Origin: Barrientosiimonas humi
GTDB taxonomy: Bacteria > Actinomycetota > Actinomycetes > Actinomycetales > Dermatophilaceae
Assembly: GCF_006716095.1 (NCBI RefSeq)
Contig: NZ_VFOK01000001.1
Span: forward strand, 1,271,375-1,335,374
Reading direction: 5' to 3'
DNA: 64,000 nucleotides
Part shown: one piece after another, positions 1-6,172 of the stretch
How the letters are laid out: every line of letters begins with the position of its first letter
How positions within the stretch are numbered: the first letter of the stretch is position 1
Notes under the pieces: model-generated
Told to the model about the DNA's origin: nothing
What the model saw: the letters and a program-made list of their open reading frames with translations, nothing else
The model's database searches: none
Position numbers and translations under genes: made by a program

Positions 1-1386
1 CTCGTCGTGCTGGTCTCGACCGTGCCGATCGTCGTGACGGTGCTGCGCAACCAGACGGAATACACCCGCCTGTCGCGACTGTCGCAGGACCAGACCGGCG
101 ACGTCGCGAGCACCGTCGAGGAGAGCGCGCTCGGGCTGCGCGTCATCAAGGCGTTCGGCCGCGACGAGCACGCCTACGGCACGTTCGACCGGCGGGCGCG
201 CACCCTGTTCGACACCCAGATCGACAAGGTCAACCTCAAGGCGCGCTTCTGGACGCTGCTGGAGATCATCCCCAACGCGACCCTGATCATCGTGCTCGGG
301 CTGGGCGCGGTCGCCGTGGGTCAGGGCCGGGTCACGCTCGGCACCCTGGTCGCCTTCATCACGATGATGCTCTCGCTGGTCTGGCCGATCTCCTCGCTGG
401 GCTTCCTGCTGTCGATGACCCAGGAGTCGATGACCGCGGCCGACCGCATCGTGCAGGTCTTCGACGAGGAGCGCACCATCGACGACGGCGACCGCGAGCT
501 CGCCGCGCCGCAGGGCCACCTGCGCCTGGAGAACGTCGGGTTCCGCTTCCCCGACGCACGGCCCGACGAGTGGACGCTGCGCGGGGTCGACCTCGACCTG
601 CAGCCCGGCGAGACGGTCGCGCTCGTCGGCGCGACCGGGTCGGGCAAGTCGCTGCTCACCGCGCTCGTGCCGCGCCTGTACGACGTCACCGAGGGGCGCA
701 TCCTGCTCGACGGCGTCGACATCCGCGACCTGACGCTGCCCTCGCTGCGCAGCGCTGTCGCCACCGCGTTCGAGGACCCGACGCTGTTCTCGATGTCGGT
801 GCGCGAGAACCTCACGCTCGGCCGGCCCGACGCCACCGACGCCGAGGTCGAGCAGGCGATCGAGGTCGCCCAGGCCCACTTCGTGCACGAGCTGCCGTAC
901 GGCCTCGACACCCGCATCGGCGAGCAGGGCATGAGCCTGTCCGGCGGTCAGCGGCAGCGGCTCTCGCTGGCCCGCGCGGTGCTCGCCCAGCCGGCCGTCA
1001 TCGTGCTCGACGACACCCTGTCGGCGCTCGACGTGCACACCGAGGCGCTGGTCGAGGCCTCGCTGCGCAGCGTGCTCGCGCACGTCACCGGCATCGTCGT
1101 CGCCCACCGCGCCTCCACCGTGCTGCTCGCCGACAAGGTCGCGCTGCTCGAGCGCGGCACGATCACCCACGTCGGCACGCACGCCGAGCTGCTCGCGACG
1201 GTCCCGGCCTATCGCCACCTGCTGGCCGCAGACGGTGACGAGCGACCAGCCGAGGGCGCTGGCTGGCACGACCACGAGGGCGACACCCGCGCCGCGGTCG
1301 AGCGGTCCGTCGACCGGGCCGTCCGCGACGACGAGGGCGACGCCGCGGCCGACGTCGACTGCGACCTCGAGGAGCTGCGCCGATGA
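1..1386 (+). CDS. ABC exporter subunit 1 (TMD-NBD half-transporter), 5' end cut by window edge
   Basis: This is the C-terminal 460 or so residues of a fused permease-ATPase half-transporter; the reading frame is open to base 1, so the true start lies upstream. The visible part has the last membrane helices (about bases 250-450) and a full nucleotide-binding domain with Walker A GATGSGKS, signature LSGGQ (about 935-949) and H-loop VVAHR. The Walker B ends LDDT, so the catalytic Glu is replaced by Asp, which marks a degenerate ATP site in heterodimeric exporters. The next gene overlaps by 4 bp (ATGA) and supplies the complementary half. By family it exports drugs or lipids at the plasma membrane; the substrate is unknown. 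The tail after the ATPase is Asp/Glu/Arg-rich. Confidence 0.93.
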   Translation, partial: LVVLVSTVPIVVTVLRNQTEYTRLSRLSQDQTGDVASTVEESALGLRVIKAFGRDEHAYGTFDRRARTLFDTQIDKVNLKARFWTLLEIIPNATLIIVLGLGAVAVGQGRVTLGTLVAFITMMLSLVWPISSLGFLLSMTQESMTAADRIVQVFDEERTIDDGDRELAAPQGHLRLENVGFRFPDARPDEWTLRGVDLDLQPGETVALVGATGSGKSLLTALVPRLYDVTEGRILLDGVDIRDLTLPSLRSAVATAFEDPTLFSMSVRENLTLGRPDATDAEVEQAIEVAQAHFVHELPYGLDTRIGEQGMSLSGGQRQRLSLARAVLAQPAVIVLDDTLSALDVHTEALVEASLRSVLAHVTGIVVAHRASTVLLADKVALLERGTITHVGTHAELLATVPAYRHLLAADGDERPAEGAGWHDHEGDTRAAVERSVDRAVRDDEGDAAADVDCDLEELRR

Positions 1387-3284
1387 GCCAGAGCACCCGC
1401 GACGAGGTCGAGCGCGACGCCGACGACCGGGCCACCGACGCCGACGAGGCGACCGCCCCGCCCGACCGCATCGAGCGCTGGCGCGGCCGGCTCGACGAGC
1501 CGAGCGACGACGTCGCCGGCGACGAGGCGGCCCCGCGGCGCAGCGAGGCCAAGCGCCTGCTCGTCGACCTGCTGCGCCCCTACCGCAGGGTGCTCGCCCT
1601 GCTGATGGTGGTCGTCGTCCTCGAGAACGCCGCCCGGCTCTCGGTGCCCAAGCTGGTGCAGCTCGGCATCGACAACGGCGTGCCGCCGCTGCAGCGCAGC
1701 GACGACGCGGGCCCGCTGCTCACCGTCGTCGGCGTGCTGGTCGGGGCCGTCGTGGTCCAGGCCGTCACCCGGGTGATCTTCCTGCGCCAGTCCGGCCGCA
1801 TCGGCCAGGAGATCCTGCTCGAGGTGCGCCGCCGGCTGTTCAAGCACTTCCAGCGCCTCGACATCGGCTTCCATGACCGCTACACCTCCGGCCGGGTCGT
1901 GAGCCGGTCGACCAGCGACGTCGAGGCCATCCAGGAGATGACCGACAGCGGGTTCGACGGGCTGATCACCGCGGTGCTCACCATGGTCGGCACCGCCGTG
2001 CTGCTGCTCACCCTCGACTGGCAGCTGGGTCTGGTCTGCCTGCTGGGCTTCCCGGTGCTGATCCTGCTCGTGCGCTGGTTCAGCCGCGAGTCGACCCGCA
2101 CCTACCGCACGGTCCGCGAGACCGCCGCGCTGGTGATCGTGCACTTCGTCGAGACGATGACCGGCGTGCGGGCCGTCCAGGCCTACCGCCGCGAGCGGCG
2201 CAACCAGGACATCTTCGAAGACGTCGCCACCCGCTACCAGCTCGCCAACGAGCGGGTGTTCCGGCTGTTCGCCATCTTCATGCCCTCGATCAAGCTCGTC
2301 GGCAACATCACCACCGGCATCGTGATCCTCTACGGCGGCTGGCGGGTCTTCCACGGCGAGATGACCATCGGCGTGCTCACCGCGTTCCTGCTCTACCTGC
2401 GGATGTTCTTCGAGCCGATGCAGGAGGTGAGCCAGTTCTACAACACGTTCCAGTCGGCCACCTCCGCGCTGGAGAAGATCGCCGGCGTGCTGGCCCAGGA
2501 GCCGGCCGTGCGTGACCCCGAGCAGCCGCGCGAGATCGCCGGCGTGCGGGGCGCCGTGCGGTTCGAGGGCGCCGAGTTCGGCTATGTCGAGGACCGCCCC
2601 GTGCTGCCGCACCTCGACCTCGACATCCCGGCCGGTCAGACGATCGCGCTGGTGGGGGCGACCGGCGCCGGCAAGACCACGATCGCCAAGCTCATGGCCC
2701 GGTTCTACGACCCCACCGCCGGCCGGGTCACCCTCGACGGCGTCGACCTGCGCGACCTGTCCCAGGCGACCCTGCGCCAGCACGTCGTGATGGTGACCCA
2801 GGAGAACGTCATGTTCGAGGGCACCGTCGCCGACAACATCCGGTTCGGCCGGCCCGACGCGAGCGACGAGCAGGTGCGCGCCGCGGCCCGGGCCGTCGGC
2901 GCCGACACCTTCGTCGAGGCGCTGCCGCAGGGGTACGACACCGACGTCGCCAAGCGCGGCGGGCGGCTGTCGGCGGGTCAGCGCCAGCTGGTGGCGTTCG
3001 CCCGCGCGTTCCTCGCCGACCCCGCCGTGCTGATCCTCGACGAGGCGACCTCCAGTCTCGACGTGCCGAGCGAGCGGCTGGTGCAGCGGGCCCTGGAGAC
3101 CGTGCTGGCCGACCGCACGGCGCTGATCATCGCCCACCGGCTGTCCACCGTCGAGGTCGCCGACCGGGTGCTCGTGCTCGACCGCGGCCGGGTCGTCGAG
3201 GACGGCTCGCCGCAGGAGCTCGTCGGGCAGTCCGGCGGCCGCTACGCCGCGCTGCACGACGCCTGGACGGAGTCGCTCGCGTAG
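1383..3284 (+). CDS. ABC exporter subunit 2 (TMD-NBD half-transporter)
   Basis: A 633-residue fused ABC half-transporter, translationally coupled to the preceding subunit. A charged cytoplasmic extension of about 60 residues comes first, then a six-helix exporter domain, then an ATPase with Walker A GATGAGKT, Walker B LILDEATSSLD and H-loop IIAHR. Its signature reads LSAGQ rather than LSGGQ. Together with the LDDT Walker B of subunit 1 this gives one consensus and one degenerate ATP site, as in TmrAB- or BmrCD-type heterodimers. The substrate cannot be read from sequence. A GC palindrome CGGCCGCGCGGCCG follows the stop codon and may help end transcription. Confidence 0.95.
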   Translation: MSQSTRDEVERDADDRATDADEATAPPDRIERWRGRLDEPSDDVAGDEAAPRRSEAKRLLVDLLRPYRRVLALLMVVVVLENAARLSVPKLVQLGIDNGVPPLQRSDDAGPLLTVVGVLVGAVVVQAVTRVIFLRQSGRIGQEILLEVRRRLFKHFQRLDIGFHDRYTSGRVVSRSTSDVEAIQEMTDSGFDGLITAVLTMVGTAVLLLTLDWQLGLVCLLGFPVLILLVRWFSRESTRTYRTVRETAALVIVHFVETMTGVRAVQAYRRERRNQDIFEDVATRYQLANERVFRLFAIFMPSIKLVGNITTGIVILYGGWRVFHGEMTIGVLTAFLLYLRMFFEPMQEVSQFYNTFQSATSALEKIAGVLAQEPAVRDPEQPREIAGVRGAVRFEGAEFGYVEDRPVLPHLDLDIPAGQTIALVGATGAGKTTIAKLMARFYDPTAGRVTLDGVDLRDLSQATLRQHVVMVTQENVMFEGTVADNIRFGRPDASDEQVRAAARAVGADTFVEALPQGYDTDVAKRGGRLSAGQRQLVAFARAFLADPAVLILDEATSSLDVPSERLVQRALETVLADRTALIIAHRLSTVEVADRVLVLDRGRVVEDGSPQELVGQSGGRYAALHDAWTESLA

Positions 3285-3302: not shown

Positions 3303-4547
3303 TCAGGCTCCGGCGAGGTGCGCCGGGTCGGGCAGCTTGTCGGTGCCGAAGAGCCGCTGCGCGTTGCGGCCGAGGATGTTGTCGCGCGCGGTCTCCGACA
3401 ACCCGTCGATCGTCATGATCCGGGCCGGCGGGTCGAAGTCCCAGTGCGGCCAGTCCGAGGAGTAGAGCAAGGTCTGCTCGGCGTTCATCATGTCGAGCGT
3501 CTGGCGCAGCGCCTGCGGGTGGCTCACCTCCAGCGGCTGCGTCGTGTAGTACATCTCGCGCATGTACTCGCTGGGGAACTTCTCCAGCAGCGGAGCGTCC
3601 GAGACGCGCAGCAGGTACTCGTGGTCGAGCCGCTGCATGAGGAACGGGATCCACGCCAGGCCGCTCTCGATCCAGATGACGTCGAGGCCGGGGAAGCGCT
3701 CCGGCAGCCCGTTGAACAGCCAGTTGGACAGGTGCGTCATGTTGCACGTCACGAACGACATGGCGTGCACCGCGGTGAACCTGTTCATCGTCTTGGTCCA
3801 GGAGTCGCCCCAGTTGGGACCGGCGTGGAAGCCCAGCGGCATGCCGTGCTTCTCCAGCTCGGCGTAGACCGGCATGTAGGCGTTCTCGTGGACGCTGAAG
3901 AAGCGCTGGCTCGTGATGAGGAAGCCCAGCACGCCCGGGTGGTCGTGGTAGAGCCGGATCGTCTCGATCGCCGCGTCCGGGTCGGTGATCGGCAGGCCCA
4001 GCATCGTCTTGATCCGCGGGTCGCGGCCGAGCACCTTCTCGGTGAACCACTTGTTGTACGCCATGATCAGCGCGGTCGCGATGCGCGGGCTCGGGTGCAT
4101 CCCGATGCCGAGCATCGTCTGCGGGAAGACCACCTGGTAGTCGATCCCGAGCGCGTCGATCGCCCGCTCGGTCACGGTGTAGGACTGTCCCTCACCCTCC
4201 GGCACCGGCTCGCGCCGCTCGGGGGCGTGCGGGATGCGTCCGCCGACCTCCTGGAAGCGCAGGCCCGGCATGTCGGCGGTCAGGGCGAACTCGCGCGCAC
4301 CCGACACCGACTCGGCGATCCCGCGGCCGTAGTCGCGCAGCACCTCGTCGTCGAGGTTGCCGAGCACCTCGTCCCACTCGAGGATCTCCTCGTGGTGGGA
4401 GTCGATGTCGACGATCAACCGGTCGCGCAGCCCGAAGGTCTCGATGTCCCTGGTCGCGTTGCGCAGGATCTCCCGGGTGTCGCTGCTGAAGTCCAGCTGC
4501 TGCACGGGGTGCCGGGTCACCCGGGGCTGGTCGGCCGTCGTGCTCAT
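3303..4547 (-). CDS. Amidohydrolase-2 family metal-dependent hydrolase/decarboxylase
   Basis: A 414-residue TIM-barrel amidohydrolase of the group that includes gamma-resorcylate and ACMS decarboxylases. The likely metal ligands are visible: DIDSHH near residues 47-52, HAG near 241 and SSDWPH near 363-368. By family it would decarboxylate or hydrolyse a small aromatic or cyclic acid. It is last in a three-gene operon with a 106-residue protein (ATGA overlap) and a Rieske ferredoxin-like protein, opposite an AraC-type regulator. That context suggests catabolism of an unidentified compound, which is inference. The substrate is unknown. Confidence 0.88.
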   Translation of the reverse strand: MSTTADQPRVTRHPVQQLDFSSDTREILRNATRDIETFGLRDRLIVDIDSHHEEILEWDEVLGNLDDEVLRDYGRGIAESVSGAREFALTADMPGLRFQEVGGRIPHAPERREPVPEGEGQSYTVTERAIDALGIDYQVVFPQTMLGIGMHPSPRIATALIMAYNKWFTEKVLGRDPRIKTMLGLPITDPDAAIETIRLYHDHPGVLGFLITSQRFFSVHENAYMPVYAELEKHGMPLGFHAGPNWGDSWTKTMNRFTAVHAMSFVTCNMTHLSNWLFNGLPERFPGLDVIWIESGLAWIPFLMQRLDHEYLLRVSDAPLLEKFPSEYMREMYYTTQPLEVSHPQALRQTLDMMNAEQTLLYSSDWPHWDFDPPARIMTIDGLSETARDNILGRNAQRLFGTDKLPDPAHLAGA

Positions 4548-4864
4548 GCTGCTCCTTCCCCGGTCTGGCTCTGCCAGAGCGTCAGGTCGAAGGTGTTCAG
4601 GTTCTCCGCGTCCATCAGCGCGGTGATCAGGGCGACCGCGTTGGTCGCGGTCAGCCCCTCGGTCGCGACCGGCACCTTCCCGCCCGAGGCCTGGCAGGCG
4701 CCGGCATAGATCCGGGCGGTGTCGGTGACCAGCCGCGACAGGGCGTCGGGCGTCAGGGCGAGGGGCTCGCCGGCCTGGACCCGCTCCACCAGGGCGTGCA
4801 GCCGGTCGATGTGGTCGACCAGCTCGGTCGACGGTTCGGTGGTGGTGGTCTCAGACGTGGACAC
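4544..4864 (-). CDS. Small protein of unknown function within the Rieske-amidohydrolase operon
   Basis: A 106-residue soluble protein that I do not recognise. It has a Ser/Thr/Glu-rich start, then a helical region (about residues 15-55) and a C-terminal segment ending in DLTLWQSQTGEG. There is no signal peptide or membrane helix. It overlaps the Rieske gene upstream by 14 bp and the amidohydrolase downstream by 4 bp, so the three are almost certainly translated from one mRNA. It could be a small subunit or chaperone of a multicomponent enzyme; nothing in its own sequence proves this. Confidence 0.8.
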   Translation of the reverse strand: MSTSETTTTEPSTELVDHIDRLHALVERVQAGEPLALTPDALSRLVTDTARIYAGACQASGGKVPVATEGLTATNAVALITALMDAENLNTFDLTLWQSQTGEGAA

Positions 4865-5228
4865 GGATGTGCCCTCCTTCCTCGGTGACCTCGACCGGGC
4901 TCAGCGCCACGGCGGCGGTCGAGGCGTGCTGACCCGTGGTGATGACGAACTCCGCCCCGTGCCAGGGGCAGACGAGATGCATCTCGCTGCGGTCGTACTC
5001 CATGCCCTTGGCGAGGTGGTCCTCGATGCGCTCGCGCACCTTGGGCATGATCCGGCCCTGGCAGACCGGCCCTCCCTGGTGCGGGCAGACGTTGTCGTAG
5101 GCGTACAGCCGGCCCTCGACCCGGAAGATGCCGATGGTGCGGTCGTCGACGTCGACGACCAGGCGGCCCAGCTCCGGGACGTCGGACGAGACGCCGACGT
5201 CGACGCCGGCACTCCGTGTCCTGCTCAT
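4851..5228 (-). CDS. Rieske [2Fe-2S] ferredoxin-like protein
   Basis: A 125-residue single-domain Rieske protein. The cluster ligands are CPH (residues 48-50) and CPWH (87-90). The insertion between the two loops is longer than usual (about 36 residues, charged, helical). By family it carries single electrons, often to an oxygenase or reductase. It is the first gene of the operon with the 106-aa protein and the amidohydrolase; no oxygenase large subunit is adjacent. A palindrome TTGACA-C-TGTCAA lies about 30 bp upstream, between it and the divergent AraC gene. Confidence 0.9.
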   Translation of the reverse strand: MSRTRSAGVDVGVSSDVPELGRLVVDVDDRTIGIFRVEGRLYAYDNVCPHQGGPVCQGRIMPKVRERIEDHLAKGMEYDRSEMHLVCPWHGAEFVITTGQHASTAAVALSPVEVTEEGGHIRVHV

Positions 5229-5258
5229 GCGCGCTCCTCTCGTTGCTCGGCGTTATTG

Positions 5259-5271
5259 TTGACACTGTCAA
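5259..5271. promoter_or_regulatory. Palindromic operator between Rieske operon and AraC-type regulator
   Basis: TTGACA-C-TGTCAA is a perfect 13-bp inverted repeat, flanked by a second imperfect pair (CGTTATTG and CAATAAACG). It sits in the 77-bp gap between two divergent genes, so it could be read in both directions. It is a candidate binding site for the adjacent regulator, but AraC proteins usually bind direct repeats, so a different regulator is also possible. Confidence 0.5.
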
Positions 5272-5305
5272 TAAACGCCGGTGCGAGCGTCGGAGCGAGG
5301 TCGAG

Positions 5306-6172
5306 ATGGGACCGGTGATGGTAGAAACGCGCGGCGGCCGGGACGACCTGGGGATCGCCGTGGTCCGGCTGGGGCGCGACCTGGGGGAGCCGGTGGCGCA
5401 GGTGCTGCCCGAGCGGCTCGCGACGCACGAGCTGATCCTGGTGCTCGAGGGCGCCGGCTCGGTGGAGGTCGACCGCACCGAGCACGCCTGCGGCCCGGGC
5501 ACGGTGCTGCTCGTGCGTCCGGGGCAGGTGCAGCGGGTGGCCACGGTGTCGGACGGCCGGCCGGAGTGGCGCGAGGCGATCGCCGTGCGGTTCGCCGGCA
5601 GCTTCCCGCGCAGCGTGTCGATCAGCCTGCCGGACGTCGCCGACGAGGCCTTCGGTGCCCGTCGGTGGAACCTGACCGGGCGCGAGCTGGAGACGGTCGG
5701 CGCCGGCTTCGCCTGCCTGGCCGAGGAGTACGCCCGGGTCGGCGACGACGCGAGCGGCACCTCGGTCGAGCTGCTCCGGCTGACCCTCACCTCGGTGCTG
5801 CTGCGGCTCACCCGGGTGCGCAGCGAGGAGACCGGCGCGGGCTCGCTCTCCCCGGGCTACCACGCCTTCCGGCGCGAGCTGGAGCGGTCGTACGCCACCG
5901 TGCACACCACGAAGGCCTACGCCGACCGGCTGGGCTTCTCGCCCCGCGCGCTCAACGAGGTCTGCCGCGCCGCCGCGGGCCACACCGCCAAGGAGCTGAT
6001 CGACGCGCGCATCGTGCTGGAGGCGCAGCGGCTGCTGGCCGACACCGACCTGCCGGTCGCCGCGATCGGGCGGCGGCTCGGCTACGATGAGGCCACCAAC
6101 TTCGGGAAGTTCTTCCTGCGCTGCACCGGCACGACACCGGGGGAGTTCCGGCGCCGGCTGGCGCCACGCTGA
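5306..6172 (+). CDS. AraC-family transcriptional regulator with cupin-like sensor domain
   Basis: A 288-residue regulator. The N-terminal half reads like a cupin (AraC-binding) sensor: LILVLEGAGSVEV, a Pro-Gly turn VRPGQVQRV, then mixed strands. The C-terminal 100 residues hold the two helix-turn-helix units ending GTTPGEFRRRL, the usual AraC close. I chose ATG 5306 because it follows GCGAGG; a longer frame from 5216 would run through the divergent promoter, and ATG 5318 is an alternative. It is divergent to the Rieske/amidohydrolase operon and is its likely regulator. Confidence 0.88.
   Translation: MGPVMVETRGGRDDLGIAVVRLGRDLGEPVAQVLPERLATHELILVLEGAGSVEVDRTEHACGPGTVLLVRPGQVQRVATVSDGRPEWREAIAVRFAGSFPRSVSISLPDVADEAFGARRWNLTGRELETVGAGFACLAEEYARVGDDASGTSVELLRLTLTSVLLRLTRVRSEETGAGSLSPGYHAFRRELERSYATVHTTKAYADRLGFSPRALNEVCRAAAGHTAKELIDARIVLEAQRLLADTDLPVAAIGRRLGYDEATNFGKFFLRCTGTTPGEFRRRLAPR

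What the first reader, a model, noticed from the sequence alone, without database searches (positions are those of the whole stretch)
3303..6172. Rieske / unknown 106-aa protein / amidohydrolase operon under a divergent AraC regulator
The three genes are tightly overlapped (14 and 4 bp), so they act together. A lone Rieske protein next to an amidohydrolase-2 enzyme without an oxygenase subunit is unusual, and the middle protein is unknown. It may be a compact catabolic or detoxification module not yet described.
Basis: inference. Interest (0 to 1): 0.6.

Follow-up and report, generated by a model that had tools for sequence, protein, structure and literature searches.

The report
Rieske-driven amidohydrolase-type oxygenase with new partner
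Three overlapping genes appear to encode a metal-containing oxygenase disguised as an "amidohydrolase", the small iron-sulfur protein that feeds it electrons, and a small helical partner protein that is found with them in several bacterial phyla but belongs to no described family, and could be a missing part of this recently discovered enzyme class.

Summary
The trio is real and conserved. The "amidohydrolase" (3303-4547) has all six metal ligands and the second-sphere Asp of the amidohydrolase-related dinuclear oxygenases (AROs: AibH2, SfbO, PtmU3). Its closest solved structures are AROs. So the operon does not lack an oxygenase: the amidohydrolase is most likely the oxygenase and the small Rieske protein its electron donor, a class published in 2021-2024.

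The new part is the 106-aa protein. It belongs to no Pfam or NCBIfam family and matches no solved fold, yet 67 of 87 homologous loci in at least four phyla carry all three genes. In whole-genome searches for the small protein alone, every copy examined except one false hit lies beside a Rieske gene, nearly always with an ARO gene too. The 14-nt Rieske/small-gene overlap is itself conserved (34 of 53 loci; all 53 in the same relative frame). Genomes carry up to 8 oxygenase paralogues but at most 4 small genes. In linked loci the small protein's sequence tracks the oxygenase more closely than the Rieske protein.

Best guess, untested: a cofactor-free coupling protein joining ferredoxin and oxygenase, working like (not homologous to) those of soluble diiron monooxygenases. 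Substrate unknown, probably a small carboxylate. The held literature does not mention it.

The parts
3303..4547 (-). ARO-type oxygenase (PF04909, 414 aa)
   Evidence: phmmer: best PDB hits 8sm7 (9e-44), 8sm9, 8sm6, AibH2 6m1w. AF2 model pLDDT 86.5; Foldseek top 20 are all ARO entries.
4395..4403 (-). first metal-ligand pair D49-x-H51
   Evidence: invariant in 86 of 87 homologues, one truncated; assigned to AibH2 D25/H27 by motif and position only, since the phmmer alignment starts downstream
3825..3827 (-). metal ligand H241
   Evidence: aligns with AibH2 H211; 87/87
3666..3668 (-). metal ligand E294
   Evidence: aligns with AibH2 E265; 87/87
3438..3461 (-). SSDWPHWD: ligands D365 and H368, second-sphere D370
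   Evidence: align with AibH2 D337, H340, D342; 87/87. The own-genome PF04909 paralogue L123 lacks the His (GSDFPN).
4544..4864 (-). small all-helical partner protein (106 aa), new family
   Evidence: no Pfam/NCBIfam family; AF2 pLDDT 88.7, helices 13-30, 39-60, 73-86, 91-100; T74 67/67, W97 65/67, acidic at 93 67/67
4851..5228 (-). ferredoxin-size Rieske [2Fe-2S] protein (125 aa)
   Evidence: PF00355 E=1.8e-13, Rieske_4 soluble ferredoxin 1.9e-8; cluster ligands 71/71
5079..5087 (-). Rieske motif C48-x-H50
   Evidence: 71/71 homologues
4959..4970 (-). Rieske motif C87-x-x-H90
   Evidence: 71/71 homologues
4851..4864 (-). 14-nt overlap of Rieske end and small-gene start
   Evidence: exactly -14 in 34 of 53 loci with this order, all 53 in the same relative frame
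4544..4547 (-). 4-nt overlap of small-gene end and oxygenase start
   Evidence: gap is variable in relatives
5306..6172 (+). divergent AraC-type regulator (ORF open from 5216; ATG 5306 more plausible)
   Evidence: HTH_18 2.6e-21, AraC_binding 8.9e-8
5248..5280 (.). candidate operator: inner dyad TTGTTGACA-C-TGTCAATAA with off-register outer arms CGGCGTT/AACGCCG
   Evidence: as one ungapped 33-bp dyad it is not exceptional; no sigma-70 promoter match

Best explanation
The operon encodes a multicomponent monooxygenase. The amidohydrolase-fold protein is the oxygenase: it binds two metals (Fe/Fe or Mn/Fe) through D49, H51, H241, E294, D365 and H368, and uses O2 plus two electrons to hydroxylate a C-H bond of a small, probably carboxylated, substrate. 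The ferredoxin-size Rieske protein delivers those electrons one at a time from an unlinked NAD(P)H reductase shared with other systems. The 106-aa helical protein carries no cofactor and acts as a coupling (effector) subunit that docks ferredoxin and oxygenase, so that electron transfer and O2 activation happen only in the productive complex. Its production is tied to the Rieske protein by the conserved 14-nt gene overlap. Shown here: conservation, ligand set, fold, gene association. Inferred: redox chemistry, Rieske as donor (by analogy with AibG), coupling role, class of substrate.
For: Oxygenase: nearest PDB sequences are AROs. Four ligands and second-sphere D342 align with AibH2, the D-x-H pair matches by motif, and all are invariant in the family. 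Foldseek of the AF2 model ranks 20 chains of ARO entries above any decarboxylase. PMC10811679 and PMC10401708 identify AROs by an adjacent small Rieske gene; PMC7782822 shows AibH1H2 needs AibG and AibF in vivo. Small protein: 67 of 71 loci with Rieske + oxygenase have it; 0 of 16 loci without a linked Rieske do. Whole-genome search of 29 oxygenase-bearing genomes: 27 have it, and all 30 copies examined adjoin a Rieske gene. Ten more from random census samples are all in full trios. It is always next to Rieske, never across the oxygenase (67/67), yet its distance matrix tracks the oxygenase best (r 0.86; partial 0.72 against 0.25 for Rieske). No conserved Cys or His column, so not an electron carrier. 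Rieske ferredoxin plus cofactor-free coupling protein is the design of four-component diiron monooxygenases (PMC9004368). Neighbours in relatives include TctC and NMT1 binding proteins, aldehyde dehydrogenases and TPP enzymes.
Against: No biochemistry. Other AROs (SfbO, AibH1H2) turn over without any such protein, using ascorbate or their ferredoxin. Rieske-oxygenase loci without a detectable small gene exist (L049, L090, L092, L103), although three of those four genomes carry one elsewhere. 16 oxygenase loci have neither partner linked. Two Rieske-small pairs lie without an adjacent ARO gene, one of them (L169) in an operon with an ACMSD-like decarboxylase. No reductase gene is linked in the window. 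Tracking the oxygenase would also fit a structural subunit or an assembly factor.
Confidence: 0.7

Rival explanations
1. The small protein is a maturation factor or chaperone that helps load or stabilise the metal site of the oxygenase (Mn versus Fe choice), rather than a coupling protein in turnover.
For: Its sequence tracks the oxygenase. Metal choice matters in this class and chaperone delivery has been suggested for AibH1H2 (PMC10401708). Fewer small genes than oxygenases per genome fits a shared maturation factor.
Against: No conserved Cys/His and only three largely acidic columns, so no obvious metal site of its own. It is always next to Rieske, and its start codon lies inside the Rieske gene in most loci of that order, which points to electron transfer rather than maturation.
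Confidence: 0.2
2. The small protein is a stable structural subunit of the oxygenase (alpha-gamma type), permanently bound, as AibH1 is to AibH2.
For: Strong co-evolution with the oxygenase; PMC12141560 describes AibH1 as an auxiliary subunit close to the AibH2 metal-binding loop.
Against: Genomes with 4-8 oxygenases mostly have 1-3 small genes; four tandem oxygenases share one small gene in L168; linkage is to Rieske, not to the oxygenase.
Confidence: 0.2
3. The amidohydrolase is an ordinary mononuclear decarboxylase or hydrolase of the ACMSD/resorcylate-decarboxylase kind, and the Rieske and small proteins serve another, unlinked oxygenase.
For: Same Pfam family and fold; one Rieske-small pair does sit beside an ACMSD-like gene (L169).
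Against: All six dinuclear ligands plus the second-sphere Asp are present and invariant. A mononuclear-type protein such as the own-genome paralogue L123 has H-x-H and no D-x-x-H. AROs outrank decarboxylases by sequence and structure.
Confidence: 0.07
4. The small ORF is a spurious or non-functional overlapping frame.
For: Low sequence conservation (18-43% identity to the window protein) and no known domain.
Against: Family-wide profile, invariant T74 and near-invariant W97 across phyla, confident AF2 fold, conserved overlap and frame, three gene orders.
Confidence: 0.01

Closest known systems
Amidohydrolase-related dinuclear oxygenases: SfbO and the proteins deposited as 'TruffO' (PDB 8SM6-8SM9), Liu et al. 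2024, PMC10811679
   Same: PF04909 fold, six-ligand dinuclear site, single oxygenase polypeptide with an adjacent small Rieske gene, native substrate unknown.
   Different: Only 21-28% identical by structural alignment. The window protein belongs to a separate subfamily linked to a conserved 106-aa protein that the paper's main text does not mention (its supplement and figure could not be read here).
AibH1H2-AibG-AibF, 2-aminoisobutyrate monooxygenase, PMC7782822 and PMC10401708
   Same: AibH2 metal ligands; Rieske ferredoxin as electron donor; catabolic operon.
   Different: No AibH1-type second amidohydrolase, no linked FMN reductase, and an extra small helical protein.
Four-component soluble diiron monooxygenases (toluene 4-monooxygenase, isoprene monooxygenase IsoABCDEF), PMC9004368
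   Same: Working plan: dinuclear oxygenase, Rieske ferredoxin and a small cofactor-free coupling protein.
   Different: Different oxygenase fold (not PF04909). The small protein shows no significant sequence or fold match to any solved structure, coupling proteins included. An analogy, not membership.
ACMSD / gamma-resorcylate decarboxylase family (mononuclear PF04909 enzymes)
   Same: Fold and Pfam family.
   Different: They lack the second metal's ligands (D-x-x-H; from family knowledge and paralogue L123) and are weaker matches by sequence and structure.

Membership tests
Amidohydrolase-related dinuclear oxygenase (ARO) | PF04909 fold | tested here: met
   PF04909 E=6e-25; Foldseek top hits are AROs, TM-score up to 0.83 normalised by target
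Amidohydrolase-related dinuclear oxygenase (ARO) | all six dinuclear ligands (AibH2 D25, H27, H211, E265, D337, H340) plus second-sphere D342 | tested here: met
   H241, E294, D365, H368, D370 by phmmer alignment; D49, H51 by motif and invariance
Amidohydrolase-related dinuclear oxygenase (ARO) | adjacent small Rieske gene in the same transcription unit | tested here: met
   window 4851-5228, same strand with overlaps; 71 of 87 homologous loci. Co-transcription itself was not measured.
Amidohydrolase-related dinuclear oxygenase (ARO) | redox-active dinuclear Fe/Fe or Mn/Fe site; O2-dependent C-H oxidation | not testable with these tools
   needs purified protein, ICP, EPR and turnover assays
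AibH1H2-type heteromeric hydroxylase | second amidohydrolase subunit (AibH1) encoded alongside | tested here: not met
   one amidohydrolase gene in the operon; the other two PF04909 loci of the genome lie about 0.75 and 1.0 Mb away
Soluble diiron monooxygenase coupling proteins (MmoB/TmoD/IsoD) | sequence or fold homology of the small protein | tested here: not met
   no PDB sequence match to a coupling protein; no Foldseek hit at E<=0.001
Soluble diiron monooxygenase coupling proteins (MmoB/TmoD/IsoD) | small cofactor-free protein encoded with Rieske ferredoxin and dinuclear oxygenase (works-like only) | tested here: met
   association and no conserved Cys/His; binding and catalytic effect untested
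Rieske non-heme iron oxygenase | Rieske domain fused to a catalytic alpha-subunit domain | tested here: not met
   125-aa protein with the Rieske domain only
ACMSD/resorcylate-type mononuclear decarboxylase | mononuclear site without D-x-x-H ligand; closest relatives are decarboxylases | tested here: not met
   D365-W-P-H368 invariant; best decarboxylase hit 4e-12 against 9e-44 for an ARO

The most novel reading that the evidence does not exclude
The 106-aa protein founds a new family of coupling proteins that gate electron transfer from a Rieske ferredoxin to Mn/Fe or diiron oxygenases of the amidohydrolase fold. This would be an independent invention of the MmoB/TmoD principle, and one ferredoxin-coupling pair would serve several paralogous oxygenases with different substrates in the same cell.
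Probability: 0.45. Interest if true: 0.78.

Novelty: new variant of a known kind. Interest (0 to 1): 0.6.

Why it matters
AROs are a young class of Mn/Fe or diiron C-H hydroxylases. The two best studied members bind their substrates very weakly in vitro (KM 83 mM for PIPES, a surrogate, with SfbO; above 100 mM for Aib with AibH1H2; PMC10811679, PMC10401708), and the AibH1H2 authors suggest native protein partners may influence substrate binding. This subfamily comes with a conserved partner that has no annotation, so whether partner proteins tune AROs becomes directly testable. The small protein also gives a genomic marker for a set of probable oxygenases now annotated as amidohydrolases.

Tried and rejected
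Tblastn of the small protein alone against plasmids found nothing and a single-sequence search of 58 near relatives found only itself: such searches are too weak for this family, and a profile was needed. Pfam, NCBIfam and PHROG hits for the small family are scattered chance matches; PDB profile hits are mainly designed helical proteins; Foldseek against PDB and viral models gave nothing significant. Greedy longest-ORF neighbour calling was unreliable in high-GC loci and was replaced by GC-periodicity scoring. Neighbour Pfam tallies did not single out one substrate. Riboflavin and 2-hydroxyisobutyrate catabolism papers surfaced by term search proved unrelated. 'TruffO', the name in the PDB titles, found no relevant paper. 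A composite operator dyad was examined and is only suggestive. A census hit, L166, was a false positive (E 9e-4, no partners).
Full report
OBSERVATION. Pfam gives Rieske (PF00355), Amidohydro_2 (PF04909) and AraC-type HTH_18/AraC_binding; the 106-aa protein has no Pfam or NCBIfam hit. The AraC ORF is open from GTG 5216, which would overlap the Rieske gene, but ATG 5306 is a better start, leaving about 77 bp between the divergent genes with a dyad at 5256-5274. As one ungapped 33-bp dyad it is not exceptional in this window.

WHAT THE AMIDOHYDROLASE IS. Sequence search of PDB ranks first the dinuclear oxygenases of this superfamily: 8sm7 (9e-44), 8sm9, 8sm6 (SfbO), AibH2 (6m1w and others), 8sm8, PtmU3; decarboxylases follow at 4e-12 or worse. 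AibH2 binds two metals through D25, H27, H211, E265, D337 and H340, with D342 in the second sphere (PMC7782822, PMC10401708). The phmmer alignment places H241, E294, D365, H368 and D370 of the window protein on H211, E265, D337, H340 and D342. The first pair, D49-S-H51, lies upstream of that local alignment and is assigned by motif. All are invariant or nearly so in 87 homologues. A PF04909 paralogue in the same genome, by contrast, has H-x-H and GSDFPN without the His. An AF2 model (pLDDT 86.5) has 20 chains of ARO entries as its best Foldseek matches, ahead of ACMSD. PMC10811679 defines this class as amidohydrolase-related dinuclear oxygenases and finds them by an adjacent small Rieske gene. 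So the operon does not lack an oxygenase.

CONSERVATION OF THE TRIO. With five plasmid loci, one locus from an actinobacterium of the same class and the window, 87 loci were scored with profiles. 67 have oxygenase + Rieske + small gene, 4 have oxygenase + Rieske only, 16 have neither partner linked, none has the small gene without Rieske. Three gene orders occur (Rk-sm-AH 48, AH-sm-Rk 14, AH-Rk-sm 5), always with Rieske and small gene adjacent. The tree places the window with Segniliparus rugosus (62% identity) in a mainly pseudonocardial and acidobacterial clade. The trio is absent from the sampled members of the window organism's own family, which suggests horizontal gain. Trios occur in Actinomycetota, Pseudomonadota, Acidobacteriota and Vulcanimicrobiota.

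GENOME-WIDE TEST. Whole-genome search with the small-protein profile in 29 genomes that carry the oxygenase, more than half of them chosen because the fetched oxygenase locus lacked a linked small gene, found it in 27. All 30 loci fetched have a Rieske gene next to the small gene and 28 an adjacent ARO-type gene. The exceptions: L136 lies in the same contig region as four tandem oxygenases that share a second Rieske-small pair (L168), and L151/L169 has an ACMSD-like gene instead. Oxygenase copies number 1-8 per genome, small genes 0-4. Every genome with one oxygenase has one small gene, except two metagenome bins with none. Random samples: 396 Actinomycetota genomes gave 7 loci, including the window, all in trios; 151 genomes of the Rhizobiaceae sample gave 5 true hits, one already counted above, all in trios, plus one false hit. 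Control: 28 more distant ARO loci (25-32% identity) have no small gene within 1.5 kb although 15 have a Rieske gene, and genomes rich in those AROs have none anywhere (G059, G086, G103, G120, G135).

THE OVERLAP. In loci with Rieske directly before the small gene, the overlap is exactly 14 nt in 34 of 53, and all 53 keep the same relative frame; the small gene's start lies within the last codons of the Rieske gene and the Rieske TGA within the first codons of the small gene. This suggests translational coupling and an old Rieske-small pair.

THE SMALL PROTEIN. AF2 with 50 sequences gives a confident four-helix model (pLDDT 88.7) with no PDB match. T74 is invariant, W97 65/67, position 93 always acidic, no column with mostly Cys or His, so it is unlikely to carry electrons or a metal. 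In linked loci its distances correlate with the oxygenase at r 0.86 and with Rieske at 0.69; the partial correlations are 0.72 and 0.25. Shared ancestry inflates all of these values, so only the contrast is informative, and the short length of both small proteins adds noise.

MECHANISM. Adjacency to Rieske, sequence tracking of the oxygenase and absence of cofactor residues together suggest a protein bridging the two: a coupling protein as in four-component diiron monooxygenases, where a cofactor-free protein modulates the oxygenase and a Rieske ferredoxin delivers electrons (PMC9004368). It is not a homologue of those. Rivals are a maturation factor or a permanent subunit. Substrate: nearby TctC and NMT1-type binding proteins, aldehyde dehydrogenases, TPP enzymes and acyl-CoA enzymes in relatives point to small organic acids; nothing in the window itself narrows it.

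LIMITS. No experiment; AF2 monomers only; loci are related, so counts are not independent events; the census scored only the best first-look candidates per genome and could miss divergent copies; the supplement of PMC10811679 could not be read, and preprints and most subscription papers are not in the library searched.

Noticed in passing
L168:691-6504 (G406 contig C48): Four tandem ARO oxygenase genes, all with complete ligand motifs, share one small gene and one Rieske gene; a second Rieske-small pair lies about 10 kb away (L167).
   Followed up: partly
L169:4843-6546: A Rieske-small pair is followed by an ACMSD-like (H-x-H, TDYPF) decarboxylase-type gene instead of an ARO, while the genome's ARO-type genes are elsewhere.
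   Followed up: partly
L108:7989-8858 (Edaphobacter modestus): A truncated, near-identical oxygenase copy without partners lies on another scaffold than the full trio L089 of the same genome.
   Followed up: no
window 5248-5280: A TTGACA-C-TGTCAA dyad with off-register CGGCGTT/AACGCCG arms lies between the Rieske and AraC genes; possible operator.
   Followed up: partly
window 1-3284: Two overlapping ABC-exporter half-transporter genes run convergent to the operon and end 18 bp from the oxygenase stop; no link to the trio was found.
   Followed up: no
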